Assembly: GCA_946183145.1 (NCBI GenBank)
Contig: CAMGZM010000002.1
Coordinates: 1 to 64,000, forward strand
Direction: 5' to 3'
From: an uncultured Fretibacterium sp.
GTDB lineage: Bacteria; Synergistota; Synergistia; Synergistales; Aminobacteriaceae
Length of the DNA stretch: 64,000 nt
Shown piece after piece: positions 53,308 through 60,672 of the stretch. The translations under genes and the position numbers were made by a program. The stretch's first letter is position 1. Each line of letters starts with the position of its first letter. Below the pieces are notes generated by a model, which worked only from the letters and a program-made list of their open reading frames with translations, made no database searches and had not been told where the DNA came from.

Positions 53308-56300
53308 TTATGCTATCCAGTATAACAGCCCTTCTTCAAGATCAGCTCTGAAATTTTCCGTGTCATCGTCATCTTCTGAAGGTGTGAACGTGTAATTTTC
53401 TCTCTGGTTGCGTTCCCCTGAGTCCTGACCCTGCCGGCTGCTGTCCTGCTGAACATCTACCGTAAACTCTGACACCTGGACTCCCTGCTGCAATAAGTTA
53501 TCCCTGAGCTGTGTGAATTGTTCCTGCACTATTTGTCGGATTTGCTCATTTGCTACTTTAACGGACGCTTCTACGCCTGAACTTGACGACGTAAGCTCAA
53601 CGGAAATTCTTCCGAGCGCAGGAGGATCAACAATAATGTTTGCTTTTCTCACACCGTCGGCGCGAATGAATAGCACAGTGTTCACAATTCCGTTGCGTAA
53701 TGTACGTGATTGGGACTGAACGCCGTTTGACTCGTAAGTTCCTGTTCTGAGACTCAAAGGCCGGGTGCTGACTCGTGCTGAAGATCTGCGAGTCCTCATT
53801 GCGCTGTCAAAAAATGTCTGGAAATCATTAAGCGCGTCAATCCTTCGTGAGTCCGTGCGAGGCTCATTGCGTGATTCTGTGTGTGCTGCTGTGCGTGAAA
53901 TTCTTGCGTGAGGAGTCTGGACTTCCGGTGCTGAAAACTCTTTGCCGTCTTGAGACTCTGAAGGCTGATGCACTTTTGAGTCTGTGATTTCTTCATGGCC
54001 GATTTGATTCTGAGTCATGCGTGATTGAGTTGTTCGTGATGATTCAGATTTTACGGCATACGAATCTTCTTCAGGGATTGAGTCTGTAATTTCGTCATGA
54101 GGTCTGTTAATGCGAGTTTGAGTCTTCCGCTGTGTATGAGGGCGTGAAATTTCAGGTGCATCTGTGATTTCGGGAGCTTCTGAGATTTCACGAGGCTGTG
54201 AGATTTCATGAGACTGTGAGATTTCATGAGACGTTGAGACTTCATGAGGCTGTGAAACTTCATGAGGCTGTGAAACTTCATGAGGCTGTGAAACTTCAGC
54301 GGCATTAACGATTATCTGAGACTCTGAGATTTCGCTGTCATTGGGGATTGTGCGAGGCTCGGAGATTTTACGGGGCTTTGATGTCTCGTGAGTGCTGCTG
54401 ATTTCGGGAGTGCTGTGCGTTTCAGGCGAATTTTCAGCGGGCTGTGTTGCTGTCGACAAACCCTGCCCTGCGGGAACGGCCATGATGATATTAGTATCTG
54501 GTATTTCAGGCTGCTTTTCGTGAGACTCTGTTTTTATCCGAGCTTCTGATTTTATGACAGGCTCAGAATTTACGGGTTTTTCAGAGCTTATTACAGTTTC
54601 GATTGCCGGGCGTTGTTTGTGAATTTCGCGCTTTGCGTGTCTTTCTGCCTTTGCGGGGATTTCCGGCTTAACGTCATTTTCATTTTCCGAGTCTGATGCG
54701 GTCTCTTGCGTTTCTGAATCGTCAGGCTTTGCGGTGATTTTATGAGTTTGAGGTCTTTCGGGAGATTCTTGCGTTTCTGCGATGACTGTCTCACGGTCAG
54801 CTTCAGGTTTTACGGAAGTCGCCGGGCTGATGTGAATCGCTTCTGAGTGCGTGCTGTCAGATTCAGGCGGAATTTCCGATTCTGCTATGATTTCCAGCCT
54901 TGCGTGTATTTCCGGCCTCGCGTAATTTTCCGGCTCTATTGGCTCTTTCGGTGATTCTGTTTCTGTGATTTCGCGTGTATCATTTTCCGACTTTTTCGCT
55001 TCTATGATTTCGTGCGTATCATTTTCCGGCTGAACGTGTGAATCATCTTTCACCGTGTGTGTCTCAGGTTTTATGCTTTCGGGCTGAATGTCTTTGTCCG
55101 CTGTAACGTCATCATGTGCAAAAATTTCGGGTGACTCTGTTTCTTGTGTGTGCTGGGAGATTTTCGGAGCTTCTGTTTCCTGCGTATCGTGAGAAATTTC
55201 CGGCTGAATCTCCTGCGTGAATGTTTGAGGCTTTTCGGCAGTCTCAGTATTACGCGCAAAGATTTCTGGAGACTCTGTTCTCTGCGAGTTGTGAGGGATT
55301 TCCGGCGAATGTTCCTGTGATACATCCGGCGTATTTTCCTGCGTGAATGCTTGAGGCTTTTCGGGCATCTCATTATCACGCGCAAAGATTTTGCTCGCAA
55401 GCGAGTCCCCTACGGGTGTCGGCGATGCTTTTTCCTGCGAGTTGTGAGGGATTTCCGGCGAATGTTCCTGTGATACATCCGGCGTATTTTCCTGCGTGAA
55501 TGCTTGAGGCTTTTCGGGCATCTCATTATCACGCGCAAAGATTTTGCTCGCAAGCGAGTCCCCTACGGGTGTCGGCGATGCTTTTTCCTGCGAGTTGTGA
55601 GGGATTTCCGGCGAATGTTCCTGTGGTACATCCTGCGTAAATTTCTGCGTGAATGCTTGAGGCTTTTCGGGCATCTCATTATCACGCGCAAAAACTTCCG
55701 GCGACTCCGTTTTCTGCGTTGTGTGAGGGATTTCGGGTGAATGTTCCTGTGATACACCCTGCGAAAATTCCTGCGTGAATGCTTGAGGCTTTTCGGGAGT
55801 CTCATTATCACGCGCAAAAACTTCCGGGGCTTCTGTTTCTTGCGAGTTGTGAGAAATTTCCGAATGAATCTCCTGCGTAAATGATTGAGGCTTTTCGGCA
55901 GTCTCAGTATTACGCGCAAAGATTTTGCTCGCAAGCGAGTCCCCTACGGGTGTCGGCGACTCTGTTTCCTGCGTTGTGTGAGAAATTTCCGGCGGATTTT
56001 CCTGCATAAATGATTGAGGCTTTTCGGGAGTCTCATCATGACGCGCAAAAATTCTCGGAGCTTCTGTTTTCTGTGAGTTGTGAGAGATTTCCGGCGAATA
56101 CTCCTGCGATACTTCCGGCGGATTTTCCTGCGAGAATGATTGAGGCTTTTCGGGAGTCTCAGTATTACGCGAAAGGATTTCCGGCGACTCTGTTCTCTGT
56201 GAGTTGTGAGAAATTTCGGGTGAATCTTCCTGTGATACTTCCTGTGAATGTTCCTGCGTGAATATCAGAGGCTCTTCACTCTCGTTATTGTTATGAGTGT

Positions 56301-56952
56301 CAGCCGCTACAACGCCATCATCAAAATCATTCTGGGGCACAAAATTTTCATGCTTCCTAAACGTAAATTCAGGATTCCTCTTAACGTCAGCAAAAAGACT
56401 CCGCCACGCATAATTTTTATCAGGCATATCACGAGTCATCACGTGCGATTCTTGTTTCACGTCCGGCGTGTCATGAGTCCTTACGGGTAATTCCTGTTTC
56501 GTTTCCTGAACGTTGCGAGTCATCACGTGCGATTCTTGTCTTGCTTCCTGTGTATCGTGAGTCATAACGGACAAATCCTGTTTTGCTTCCGTTGTGTCAT
56601 GAATATTCTGCGTGTCATGAGTCATTGCGGGCGGTTCCTGTTCATTTTCCAGCAAGTCATGAGGCTGTACGTTATCACCCTGCGTGCTTTTAGTGGCGAG
56701 AATATCTATCACTGTTCCTGAAAACGCCGCTGTGTTCGTGAAGGCTGGCTGTGATGATTCTGCCGGAAGATTCTGCGCTGTCATTTCGGGGTGAAGTGAG
56801 TCTGAATTTTTCTGGAGCGCGTATTCTGAGATCAGAGCGTCAAATATTCCCGGCATTGTCCCGGTATTTTCCTGCGTTATTATCCCCGGCAATAACTTCT
56901 GAGGCTGTGCGCTAACTTGTGTCTGAAGAAACGAAAATATTTCCGGCGACAT
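53308..56952 (-). CDS. fliK: Flagellar hook-length control protein FliK, greatly expanded by repeats
   Basis: At 1214 residues it is about three times usual FliK size. The C-terminal about 150 residues hold the FliK switch domain (VDPPALGRISVELTSSS, then EQFTQLRDNLLQQGV). The remaining 1000 residues are a low-complexity Pro/Glu/Ser/Thr/Gln region built of imperfect repeats such as ETPEKPQSFTQE, SPEIPHNSQ and HEVSQP. FliK acts as a secreted ruler measuring hook length, so a long disordered ruler may specify a long hook. Position between motE and flgD agrees with the role. Internal repeats are listed separately. Confidence 0.88.
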   Translation of the reverse strand: MSPEIFSFLQTQVSAQPQKLLPGIITQENTGTMPGIFDALISEYALQKNSDSLHPEMTAQNLPAESSQPAFTNTAAFSGTVIDILATKSTQGDNVQPHDLLENEQEPPAMTHDTQNIHDTTEAKQDLSVMTHDTQEARQESHVMTRNVQETKQELPVRTHDTPDVKQESHVMTRDMPDKNYAWRSLFADVKRNPEFTFRKHENFVPQNDFDDGVVAADTHNNNESEEPLIFTQEHSQEVSQEDSPEISHNSQRTESPEILSRNTETPEKPQSFSQENPPEVSQEYSPEISHNSQKTEAPRIFARHDETPEKPQSFMQENPPEISHTTQETESPTPVGDSLASKIFARNTETAEKPQSFTQEIHSEISHNSQETEAPEVFARDNETPEKPQAFTQEFSQGVSQEHSPEIPHTTQKTESPEVFARDNEMPEKPQAFTQKFTQDVPQEHSPEIPHNSQEKASPTPVGDSLASKIFARDNEMPEKPQAFTQENTPDVSQEHSPEIPHNSQEKASPTPVGDSLASKIFARDNEMPEKPQAFTQENTPDVSQEHSPEIPHNSQRTESPEIFARNTETAEKPQTFTQEIQPEISHDTQETEAPKISQHTQETESPEIFAHDDVTADKDIQPESIKPETHTVKDDSHVQPENDTHEIIEAKKSENDTREITETESPKEPIEPENYARPEIHARLEIIAESEIPPESDSTHSEAIHISPATSVKPEADRETVIAETQESPERPQTHKITAKPDDSETQETASDSENENDVKPEIPAKAERHAKREIHKQRPAIETVISSEKPVNSEPVIKSEARIKTESHEKQPEIPDTNIIMAVPAGQGLSTATQPAENSPETHSTPEISSTHETSKPRKISEPRTIPNDSEISESQIIVNAAEVSQPHEVSQPHEVSQPHEVSTSHEISQSHEISQPREISEAPEITDAPEISRPHTQRKTQTRINRPHDEITDSIPEEDSYAVKSESSRTTQSRMTQNQIGHEEITDSKVHQPSESQDGKEFSAPEVQTPHARISRTAAHTESRNEPRTDSRRIDALNDFQTFFDSAMRTRRSSARVSTRPLSLRTGTYESNGVQSQSRTLRNGIVNTVLFIRADGVRKANIIVDPPALGRISVELTSSSSGVEASVKVANEQIRQIVQEQFTQLRDNLLQQGVQVSEFTVDVQQDSSRQGQDSGERNQRENYTFTPSEDDDDTENFRADLEEGLLYWIA
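54181..54298. repeat. 18-bp tandem repeats within fliK
   Basis: About six copies of an 18-base unit encode (S/H)EVSQPH-type hexapeptides. Three central copies (54240-54298) are nearly identical at DNA level, indicating recent amplification. Confidence 0.8.
55282..55632. repeat. 153-bp tandem duplication within fliK, with palindrome-bearing segment
   Basis: A 153-base unit is repeated almost perfectly at 55282-55434 and 55435-55587, with a third partial copy to about 55632. It keeps the frame (51 codons). Each full unit carries a segment with the palindrome CTCGC-AA-GCGAG (55394-55405, 55547-55558); a third copy of that segment lies at 55928-55939, where it is embedded in otherwise diverged repeat. 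The segment encodes TPVGDSLASK, unlike the surrounding Pro/Glu/Gln-rich repeat. Confidence 0.85.
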
Positions 56953-58272: not shown

Positions 58273-58722
58273 TCAATAGTCCCCTTTCCGTGAAAATTGC
58301 ATTGTCGCAACATCATCAAGTTCATTCTGTTCAATGCCTAATTGTTCGTGGAAGTCTGCTTCTTTGAGCTTGTCTATGTATGTCTCCATGATTCTTACGT
58401 CTCTATGTCTTTCAACGAGACGCGCTTCAGTTCCTGCGATTCGTGTTCTTACTTCCGCGAGTGAATCTTGTCCGCGCAAAATATCCGTGTTAATCGCATC
58501 GATAAACTGACGCTGAAACCATAAATCAGTCGCTGATACTGCTTTGCCTCCTGCCCTGCTGAAGTCAGAGATTGCCTGTTTCTTTTCGCCTTCAAGCTGT
58601 GAGATGTGCGCAATTACTTCACGTTCCTCGCTTCTTTCGGCGGCTAAAATTGCCTGCTCATTCTTGCGGCTGTCCTCGCGGATTTTCAGTATTCGGTTGA
58701 AGCGTGCTATTCTCTCGTTCAT
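58273..58722 (-). CDS. fliJ: Flagellar export chaperone FliJ
   Basis: A 149-residue, almost fully helical, highly charged protein with the FliJ pattern: N-terminal RFNRILKIREDSRKNEQAIL and a long coiled-coil hairpin. FliJ is the stalk-like component of the FliI ATPase complex. Normally fliJ directly follows fliI; here a toxin-antitoxin pair separates them, and the fliJ ATG overlaps the toxin stop by four bases (ATGA). Confidence 0.85.
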   Translation of the reverse strand: MNERIARFNRILKIREDSRKNEQAILAAERSEEREVIAHISQLEGEKKQAISDFSRAGGKAVSATDLWFQRQFIDAINTDILRGQDSLAEVRTRIAGTEARLVERHRDVRIMETYIDKLKEADFHEQLGIEQNELDDVATMQFSRKGDY

Positions 58723-59030
58723 GGCTGAAGCATTGAGTCAATATCACGCCTGCTGTAGATTATGCGCGATATGTTTACAATATGATTCTCATCATCAACG
58801 CTGTAAACAATCAGGTAATTATCGACAGAGCAAATACGTGCGCCTGTATTTTTCCTGCGGACTCTGTACATTTTCGGGAAGACAGCAAGAGTCTCCGCTG
58901 CCTTAATGATTCTGGCAACCTGCCTTTCTGCTGTATCAGGAGCATAAAATTTTCCCGCAATGTATTCATATATCTCGTCAAGGTCATATATTGCTGAAGG
59001 AGCGTAAATAATTCTATATTTCAATGCCAT
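58719..59030 (-). CDS. relE: RelE/ParE-family toxin
   Basis: A 103-residue protein of the RelE/ParE fold: LKYRIIYAPSAIYDLDEIYEYIA, the middle FPKMYRVRRKNTGARICSVDNYLIVYSVDD and the final ISRIIYSRRDIDSML. Such toxins cleave mRNA on the ribosome (RelE) or block gyrase (ParE); the Arg/Tyr-rich C-terminus cannot decide between them. It overlaps the antitoxin gene by 17 bases, the classical type II arrangement, and the fliJ start by four bases. It sits inside the flagellar operon. Confidence 0.88.
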   Translation of the reverse strand: MALKYRIIYAPSAIYDLDEIYEYIAGKFYAPDTAERQVARIIKAAETLAVFPKMYRVRRKNTGARICSVDNYLIVYSVDDENHIVNISRIIYSRRDIDSMLQP

Positions 59031-59316
59031 ATTTAGACTCCATCATACGTCTGACTTCATCCGCCGGAATACCTTTTCCCGCTTTGATTTCGTCAAAGGC
59101 TTCCTGAATCATCTTGTCAAATTCTTCCTCTGTCATATCCTCAAGGCACGGTATCGGAGGCTGCCCGAAATCTTTCGGTATTCTCTTCAGAACTGCAACA
59201 TGATTCAGCAGAAGGTTTACAGCTTTTCCCGCCGACATCCCAAGCTCCTCAAATACTGCGTCTGCTCTTCTCTTTATGTCAGAATCAACTTCAACCGTAA
59301 ACAACTCTGTACTCAT
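59014..59316 (-). CDS. relB: RelB/DinJ-family antitoxin
   Basis: A 100-residue antitoxin. The N-terminal ribbon-helix-helix (FTVEVDSDIKRRADAVFEEL, GMSAGKAVNLLLNHV) is typical of RelB/DinJ and would bind the module's own promoter; the C-terminal acidic helical part neutralises the toxin. It begins three bases after the fliI stop. No separate promoter is visible, so it may depend on flagellar transcription, unless an internal promoter lies within fliI. Confidence 0.88.
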   Translation of the reverse strand: MSTELFTVEVDSDIKRRADAVFEELGMSAGKAVNLLLNHVAVLKRIPKDFGQPPIPCLEDMTEEEFDKMIQEAFDEIKAGKGIPADEVRRMMESKYGIEI

Positions 59317-59319
59317 TTT

Positions 59320-60672
59320 CTATTCTCCTTTCGGCTGATTAGGATACGGCGCAAGCTCCAATAATCTTTTGTCGGTCTCCTCAAAGCTCGTTGGGTCTTC
59401 AACTCTCTGTGATAAGAATCCTCTCACGTTCTCCATATTCGCCAACGCCCAATCAACACGCATGTTGCTTCCGGATTTATACGCGCCTATGTTGATGAGG
59501 TCTTCTGACTCCGCATAAGTCGCAAGCAAATCGCGCACTCTTCCGGCGGCGTTGAGGTGTTCACGTGAGACAAGAGCGGGCATGACTCTGCTGACGGAAT
59601 CAAGAACGCTCACAGCAGGGTAGAAATTTCTCGCGGCAATCTTCCTCGACAAAACTATATGGCCGTCAAGAATACCCCTCACTGTGTCCGCAACTGGCTC
59701 ATTCATGTCATCACCGTCAACAAGCACCGTGTATATTCCCGTAATGCTTCCTGTTTCACCAGCTCCGGCACGTTCCAGCAATCTCGGCAGCATCTCAAAC
59801 ACTGAAGGCGTATATCCTCTTGTTGCAGGAGGCTCACCGATTGCGAGTCCTATTTCACGCTGTGCGCGGGCGACTCTTGTTACTGTGTCCATCATCAAGA
59901 GAACATCTTTTCCCTGATCCCGGAAATATTCTGCGATTGCCGTTGCTGTCATGGCCGATTTGAGTCTGATTAGCGCGGGCTGGTCTGAAGTCGCAATCAC
60001 AAGAACAGAACGCTTGAGTCCTTCAGGCCCTAAATCACGCTCGATAAATTCACGGACTTCACGGCCTCGTTCACCGACAAGCGAAATCACATTAACATCC
60101 GCAGTCGTGTAACGCGCCATCATTCCGAGCAATGTACTTTTTCCCACGCCTGAACCCGCAAAAATTCCGATTCGCTGTCCCTTGCCGAGCGTAAGCATTC
60201 CGTCAACGACTCTAACTCCTACACTTAACGGAGTATCCACCATTTTCCGCCGCAAAGGGTGAGGGGGAGTCGCGTATAACGGATAAAAGTCGCTCGCTGC
60301 TATAGGCCCTTTGTCATCAATCGGATTCCCTAAACCGTCAAGCACTCGCCCTAATAACGCCTCGCCTACAGGGACTTCAAGCGGACGATTCGTTGAAACG
60401 ACATCGCACCCCGGCCCGACTTCCTGCAACGCTCCGAGAGGCATGAGCAAAACTCTGTCACCGCGAAAACCAACTACTTCCGCGTCAAGTTCGTGCGAGC
60501 CATCGCGAAATTGTATGTGGCACAAATCACCGACTCTTACGTCAGGCCCCTGGGACTCCGCAACTAGTCCGACAACCTGAACAATACGCCCGTTGATTTT
60601 GACTAGCGGCTTCTGCAACAAGTCAACCGCAAACAACTGGAACAAGTCAACATCCTGTACATCATTCGTCAT
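59320..60672 (-). CDS. fliI: Flagellar type III export ATPase FliI
   Basis: A 450-residue hexameric ATPase related to F1-beta. Walker A is FAGSGVGKSTLLG, Walker B lies in DVLLMMDTVTRVARA, with GERGREVREF and GEPPATRGYTPSVF also present. It energises export of rod, hook and filament proteins. Its ATG overlaps the fliH stop by four bases. Length is normal. Confidence 0.96.
   Translation of the reverse strand: MTNDVQDVDLFQLFAVDLLQKPLVKINGRIVQVVGLVAESQGPDVRVGDLCHIQFRDGSHELDAEVVGFRGDRVLLMPLGALQEVGPGCDVVSTNRPLEVPVGEALLGRVLDGLGNPIDDKGPIAASDFYPLYATPPHPLRRKMVDTPLSVGVRVVDGMLTLGKGQRIGIFAGSGVGKSTLLGMMARYTTADVNVISLVGERGREVREFIERDLGPEGLKRSVLVIATSDQPALIRLKSAMTATAIAEYFRDQGKDVLLMMDTVTRVARAQREIGLAIGEPPATRGYTPSVFEMLPRLLERAGAGETGSITGIYTVLVDGDDMNEPVADTVRGILDGHIVLSRKIAARNFYPAVSVLDSVSRVMPALVSREHLNAAGRVRDLLATYAESEDLINIGAYKSGSNMRVDWALANMENVRGFLSQRVEDPTSFEETDKRLLELAPYPNQPKGE

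What the first reader, a model, noticed from the sequence alone, without database searches (positions are those of the whole stretch)
58719..59316. Toxin-antitoxin module embedded in the flagellar operon between fliI and fliJ
relB begins three bases after the fliI stop, relE overlaps relB by 17 bases, and fliJ overlaps the relE stop by four bases. Since fliI and fliJ are usually adjacent, the pair is an insertion that kept translational coupling. It could tie toxin/antitoxin balance to flagellar transcription, penalise loss of the operon, or repress the downstream genes through RelB autoregulation.
Basis: partly seen in the sequence, partly recalled or inferred. Interest (0 to 1): 0.6.

Follow-up and report, generated by a model that had tools for sequence, protein, structure and literature searches.

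The report
Toxin–antitoxin pair lodged in flagellar operon
A small self-poisoning gene pair sits in the middle of a flagellum-building operon in about half the species of one bacterial genus, always at the same spot; it has been swapped, lost and re-acquired there, and the next flagellar gene now seems to depend on it for translation, which makes it a good natural case of how such "addiction" genes settle into a core operon.

Summary
Confirmed to the base: an intact RelB/DinJ-like antitoxin and ParE-fold toxin lie between fliI and fliJ. Of 43 held genomes of the genus, 20 carry both genes intact at this junction, 1 is occupied at a contig end, 4 are broken or scarred, 13 empty, 5 unscorable. 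The toxin profile hits nowhere else in the genus and at no fliI|fliJ junction elsewhere in the phylum. All junction toxins but one unresolved basal copy form one clade: one arrival, genus-restricted. Both genes are under purifying selection; broken loci lose the toxin, not the antitoxin. The allele here was replaced: against the sister species, flanks are about 90% identical in DNA, the module 50-56%. One species keeps the fossil of re-entry into an empty junction. fliJ lacks its own Shine-Dalgarno in 17 of 20 occupied loci but only 3 of 12 empty ones, so FliJ translation is probably coupled to the toxin gene. Insertion and coupling are supported; RelB repression of downstream genes and motility control are not. 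Best reading: an addiction module entrenched in a core operon, a new variant of the mazEF-in-relA kind. Toxicity and coupling remain untested.

The parts
59014..59316 (-). RelB/DinJ-like ribbon-helix-helix antitoxin, 100 aa
   Evidence: PF04221 29.8 bits; profile of 20 alleles matches DinJ and RelB structures; dN/dS 0.10-0.29 in close allele pairs
58719..59030 (-). ParE-fold toxin (RelE/ParE superfamily), 103 aa
   Evidence: PF05016 68.3 bits; AlphaFold2 model pLDDT 84, best PDB folds ParE 6x0a, 5cw7, 5ceg
59014..59030 (-). 17-base antitoxin/toxin overlap (10-20 bases in 19 of 20 alleles, 2-base gap in one)
   Evidence: sequence
58719..58722 (-). ATGA toxin stop / fliJ start overlap; fliJ has no Shine-Dalgarno of its own here
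   Evidence: sequence; SD count 3/20 occupied vs 9/12 empty junctions
59320..60672 (-). fliI, upstream flank of the insertion
   Evidence: TIGR03497 above cut-off
58273..58722 (-). fliJ, downstream flank, probably translationally coupled to the toxin gene
   Evidence: TIGR02473 above cut-off
59308..59316 (-). left break of the replaced tract relative to sister genome G030: identity is lost after the first three antitoxin codons
   Evidence: DNA alignment
58719..58745 (-). right break of the replaced tract: the last codons of the toxin are again nearly identical to G030
   Evidence: DNA alignment

Best explanation
A type II toxin-antitoxin module (RelB/DinJ-like antitoxin plus ParE-fold toxin, probably a gyrase poison) entered the fliI|fliJ junction once, near the base of this genus. 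It is read from the flagellar transcript and became wired into its translation: the antitoxin has the strong ribosome site, and fliJ now relies on coupling to the toxin's stop codon. It persists because losing it is costly in two ways, release of the toxin (addiction) and reduced FliJ translation. It leaves by toxin-first decay or internal deletion, and moves between species of the genus by recombination involving the flanking flagellar sequence, replacing the resident allele or refilling an empty junction. Shown: location, one clade, absence elsewhere, purifying selection, allele replacement, loss scars, re-entry fossil, SD correlation. Inferred: toxicity, gyrase target, cotranscription, the coupling itself, addiction as the reason for persistence, the recombination route.
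For: 43 genus genomes: toxin-profile hits only at this junction, one per genome; 19 of 20 junction toxins form one clade, 96/94 support, against 20 toxins from elsewhere in the phylum. Species tree: module in the basal pair G018/G064, nested losses such as G011 inside G034/G035 and G004 beside G028. Replacement: flanks about 90%, module 50-56% DNA identity; G000+G030 rejected as a clade for toxin (p 2e-4) and antitoxin (p 3e-5) although they are sisters by flanking genes; fourfold sites differ 0.59 in the module vs 0.28 in flanks, p 3e-4. Transfer: G030/G065 synonymous differences lower in the module than in flanks (0.22 vs 0.38, p 9e-5). Re-entry: G023 reads fliI stop, 66-nt fliJ 5' piece, 27-nt fliI 3' piece, antitoxin, toxin, fliJ; both pieces beat 300 shuffles. 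Loss: G016 and G066 keep an open antitoxin frame with the toxin deleted, G064 toxin frameshifted, G006 an 82-nt scar. Coupling: fliJ SD 3/20 vs 9/12, p 0.0017; antitoxin SD 19/20.
Against: Toxicity, cotranscription and coupling are not tested. The SD comparison does not correct for shared ancestry. Three partly decayed loci are too few to prove toxin-first decay. Empty junctions without scars (G004, G021) could be never occupied or cleanly lost. Donors of the exchanged alleles are not in the sample. In G034/G035 and G028/G065 synonymous divergence equals the flanks, so much of the divergence there is fast evolution in place, not exchange. The basal G018 toxin is not firmly in the junction clade.
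Confidence: 0.62

Rival explanations
1. The pair is a motility-linked regulator: flagellar transcription sets the toxin/antitoxin ratio and so ties growth to flagellum assembly.
For: Same position in 20+ species, coupled genes, purifying selection.
Against: 13 congeners with adjacent fliI-fliJ lack it, with at least 10 changes of occupancy on the tree; sequence turnover is far above that of the flagellar genes. Known TA pairs in relA-mazG and dinB-yafP are judged to have no functional link to their host operons (PMC7167474).
Confidence: 0.12
2. RelB binds upstream of its start and represses the downstream flagellar genes.
For: RHH antitoxins normally autoregulate (established knowledge); the antitoxin matches RelB and DinJ over its DNA-binding part.
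Against: No inverted repeat of 6 or more bases in 59270-59440; no promoter-like hexamer pair just upstream of the antitoxin start on the minus strand; 3 bases between fliI and relB here, at most 44 in 18 of 20 alleles.
Confidence: 0.08
3. The fliI|fliJ junction is an integration hot spot that has received unrelated TA pairs many times.
For: Toxins at the junction are only about 41% identical at the median.
Against: 19 of 20 junction toxins form one clade apart from the phylum's other ParE toxins (96/94), and none of those lies beside fliI.
Confidence: 0.08
4. Anti-phage or anti-plasmid function: alleles diversify at the toxin-antitoxin contact surface because invaders carry counter-antitoxins.
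For: In four of seven allele pairs examined (two of them sharing G028) amino-acid change is concentrated in the antitoxin C-end and toxin helices 1-2 (p 8e-7 to 1e-3); the antitoxin C-part tracks the toxin while its N-part does not track the toxin's N-half (partial Mantel 0.34 and 0.32 vs 0.03).
Against: Three other pairs show no such concentration; no PADLOC match; no relative found in viral contigs or plasmids, one 34% match in a phage record.
Confidence: 0.1

Closest known systems
mazEF in relA-mazG, yafNO in dinB-yafP, ccdO157 in folA-apaH of E. coli (PMC7167474)
   Same: Chromosomal type II TA pair inserted between two core genes, patchy presence among relatives, empty sites otherwise undisturbed, some copies decaying.
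   Different: Here it sits in the flagellar export operon, is essentially one clade confined to one junction across a genus, its alleles are replaced between species, and the downstream gene has lost its own ribosome site.
ParD-ParE pairs of Mesorhizobium opportunistum (6x0a, 5ceg; PMC7669267)
   Same: Closest solved toxin fold; there the antitoxin C-terminal half holds the toxin contacts, and pairs at 41-42% identity are insulated from each other, the identity range seen between alleles here.
   Different: Antitoxin here is RelB/DinJ-like, not ParD-like; those are paralogues in one genome, these are alleles at one locus in different species.
DinJ-YafQ / RelB-RelE
   Same: Antitoxin family (4ml0, 4q2u, 2k29 are among its best PDB matches), antitoxin first, overlapping genes.
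   Different: Toxin is nearer ParE than RelE or YafQ; curated RelE_StbE and RelB_DinJ models fall just below their cut-offs.

Membership tests
Type II toxin-antitoxin module | Small antitoxin gene overlapping or adjoining a small toxin gene of a known toxin family | tested here: met
   RelB PF04221 and ParE_toxin PF05016 above gathering scores, 17-base overlap
Type II toxin-antitoxin module | Toxin toxic, neutralised by the antitoxin protein | not testable with these tools
   Indirect only: partly broken loci keep the antitoxin and lose the toxin
Type II toxin-antitoxin module | Own autoregulated promoter/operator | tested here: inconclusive
   No inverted repeat or convincing promoter upstream of the antitoxin; consensus scans cannot exclude one inside fliI
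RelE toxins (TIGR02385 RelE_StbE) | Score above curated cut-off | tested here: not met
   27.7 bits against a cut-off of 27.9
ParE toxins (PF05016, ParE fold) | Pfam match and ParE as nearest fold | tested here: met
   68.3 bits, all 20 alleles match, Foldseek best hits mostly ParE, TM 0.76-0.80
ParDE systems | ParD-type antitoxin | tested here: not met
   19 of 20 antitoxins match RelB PF04221 and no ParD model
ParE toxins | Poisons DNA gyrase | not testable with these tools
   none

The most novel reading that the evidence does not exclude
The locus behaves as an allelic incompatibility system: mutually insulated TA alleles, diversified at the toxin-antitoxin contact surface, compete for one junction and travel with flagellar DNA, acting as a small gene drive or as a barrier to recombination in the flagellar operon.
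Probability: 0.18. Interest if true: 0.8.

Novelty: new variant of a known kind. Interest (0 to 1): 0.55.

Why it matters
How TA pairs move and integrate into chromosomal operons is stated to be unelucidated (PMC7167474). This genus offers occupied, empty, scarred, swapped and refilled versions of one junction in related species, plus a concrete, testable retention mechanism besides addiction: the downstream flagellar gene loses its own ribosome site and depends on the module.

Tried and rejected
A profile scan of viral contigs was not possible because the alignment has no conserved stretch; single-protein scans found nothing. Independent-insertion model: disfavoured by the toxin tree. Decay model for this copy: rejected by intact frames and dN/dS. 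A 276-nt gap in sister-genus genome G101 looked like a toxin remnant, but the profile score is not significant (E 0.06-0.4), so dating the entry before the genus split is left open. Interface diversification as a general rule: not claimed, 3 of 7 pairs do not show it. Four literature searches with flagellar terms turned up no listed paper reporting a TA pair between fliI and fliJ; only openly licensed papers were searched and most listed papers were judged by title and abstract. The antitoxin was not folded.

Full report
The observation. On the minus strand, fliI ends at 59320, an antitoxin runs 59316-59014, a toxin 59030-58719 and fliJ starts at 58722; the 3-, 17- and 4-base relations are exact. 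The antitoxin matches RelB (PF04221, 29.8 bits), the toxin ParE_toxin (PF05016, 68.3 bits), and the neighbours are FliH, FliI, FliJ and an SLT transglycosylase. Sequence profiles and a predicted structure (pLDDT 84) place the toxin nearest ParE (6x0a, 5cw7, 5ceg), while the antitoxin is nearest DinJ and RelB. It is therefore a RelB/DinJ-type antitoxin with a ParE-type toxin rather than a strict relBE.

Where it occurs. Of 43 held genomes in the genus, 20 have both genes intact between fliI and fliJ. G027 has the antitoxin start at a contig end. G064 has a frameshifted toxin, G016 and G066 keep an open antitoxin frame with most of the toxin deleted, and G006 keeps an 82-base scar containing the antitoxin start and the toxin's last codons. 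Twelve are empty with gaps of 0-35 bases; G022 is very probably empty (fliJ begins 24 bases after the FliI match ends); five cannot be scored (contig ends, or fliI and fliJ apart in G024 and G036). The toxin profile hits only this junction in the genus, once per genome. In the phylum (188 genomes) related toxins exist in other genera, but by coordinates none lies at fliI. Of 57 outgroup junctions fetched (one cut by a contig end), none holds a TA pair. G101 has an ambiguous 276-base gap.

One origin. With 20 toxins from elsewhere in the phylum, 19 of the 20 intact junction toxins form one clade (96/94); the basal G018 is on the same side of the best tree without support. On a tree of fliI+fliJ+slt DNA the module is present in the basal pair G018/G064, and empty genomes nest among occupied ones, with at least 10 changes between occupied-or-scarred and empty.

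It is kept as a working pair. In allele pairs close enough to measure, dN/dS is 0.10-0.29 for the antitoxin and 0.11-0.25 for the toxin (G000/G030, which are not orthologous alleles, give 0.40 and 0.32, and the highest-dS pairs are near saturation). 20 of 24 scorable occupied or scarred loci have both frames open. The three partly broken loci all spare the antitoxin frame and hit the toxin, as expected if the toxin is harmful, though three cases prove little.

Allele replacement. The sister genome G030 has 99% FliI and 99% FliJ identity but 43% for both module proteins. DNA identity is about 90% in the flanks and 50-56% across the module; it drops after the third antitoxin codon and returns within the last toxin codons. 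G030's allele is shared with G065 (85% and 83%). Toxin and antitoxin each reject G000+G030 as a clade (p 2e-4 and 3e-5), against 100/99 support for that clade from flanking genes. Fourfold sites differ 0.59 in the module and 0.28 in the flanks (p 3e-4), while for G030/G065 the module differs less than the flanks (same-residue codons 0.22 vs 0.38, p 9e-5). The simplest account is exchange of the whole module between species.

A re-entry fossil. In G023 (L009) the fliI stop is followed by CA, a 66-base in-frame piece of the 5' end of fliJ (1338-1403), a 27-base piece of the 3' end of fliI (1404-1430, LAQYPSQQ*), then antitoxin, toxin and complete fliJ. Both pieces score above all of 300 base shuffles (25 vs at most 15; 20 vs at most 14). 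This looks like donor DNA carrying its own fliI end entering an empty fliI|fliJ junction; a tandem duplication with loss of the first module copy is a more complex alternative, and the fliI piece is indeed most like G023's own fliI.

Wiring into the operon. A Shine-Dalgarno-like motif precedes fliJ in 3 of 20 occupied but 9 of 12 empty junctions (Fisher p 0.0017, not corrected for ancestry); one precedes the antitoxin in 19 of 20. The toxin stop lies within 20 bases of the fliJ start in all 20. FliJ translation in occupied genomes therefore probably depends on ribosomes arriving from the toxin gene. No inverted repeat or good promoter is seen at the antitoxin start, so the module probably uses the flagellar transcript. 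These two points are inference from sequence.

Where the proteins change. In G034/G035, G028/G065, G028/G030 (not independent of the previous pair) and G005/G026 amino-acid change is concentrated in the antitoxin C-end and toxin helices 1-2 (p 8e-7, 6e-6, 1e-5, 1e-3); in G033/G061, G023/G061 and G030/G065 it is not. Across 18 alleles the antitoxin C-part tracks the toxin (partial Mantel 0.34 and 0.32, p 0.001, FliJ distance controlled) while its N-part does not track the toxin's N-half (0.03, p 0.37). In ParD the C-terminal half holds all toxin contacts, and ParDE pairs at 41-42% identity do not cross-react (PMC7669267). Which segments are the interface here is assumed by analogy. Where synonymous divergence equals the flanks (G034/G035, G028/G065), this is fast protein change in place rather than exchange of the whole module.

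What it is like. TA pairs inside core operons with patchy presence are known (mazEF in relA-mazG, yafNO in dinB-yafP, ccdO157 in folA-apaH), and how they insert is called unelucidated (PMC7167474). Not described there, and as far as the searches here went not elsewhere, are the flagellar setting, confinement of one clade to one junction across a genus, replacement and refilling at that junction, and the lost fliJ ribosome site. I therefore call it a new variant of a known kind. The phylum is not named by the tools; operon layout suggests Synergistota, from memory and untested.

Noticed in passing
53308-56952 (-): FliK-position protein of 1214 aa with long tandem repeats (153-, 126-, 84- and 18-base units, up to 98% identical), poorly alignable with the sister genome.
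   Followed up: partly
L030 and L051 (G024, G036): Two related genomes have fliI and fliJ in different places; fliI is followed by unrelated sequence, so the flagellar operon has been broken apart there.
   Followed up: no
L009:1336-1460 (G023): Fused fragments of the 5' end of fliJ and the 3' end of fliI in front of the antitoxin, an insertion fossil.
   Followed up: yes
L110 (G101), between fliI and fliJ: 276-base gap in the sister genus with a weak, non-significant resemblance to the toxin's middle part.
   Followed up: partly
genus genomes, e.g. G009 contigs C18, C82, C110, C116, C136: Several weak RelB-like antitoxin matches elsewhere (nine matches in all in G009, one of them the junction copy), apparently other TA families.
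   Followed up: no
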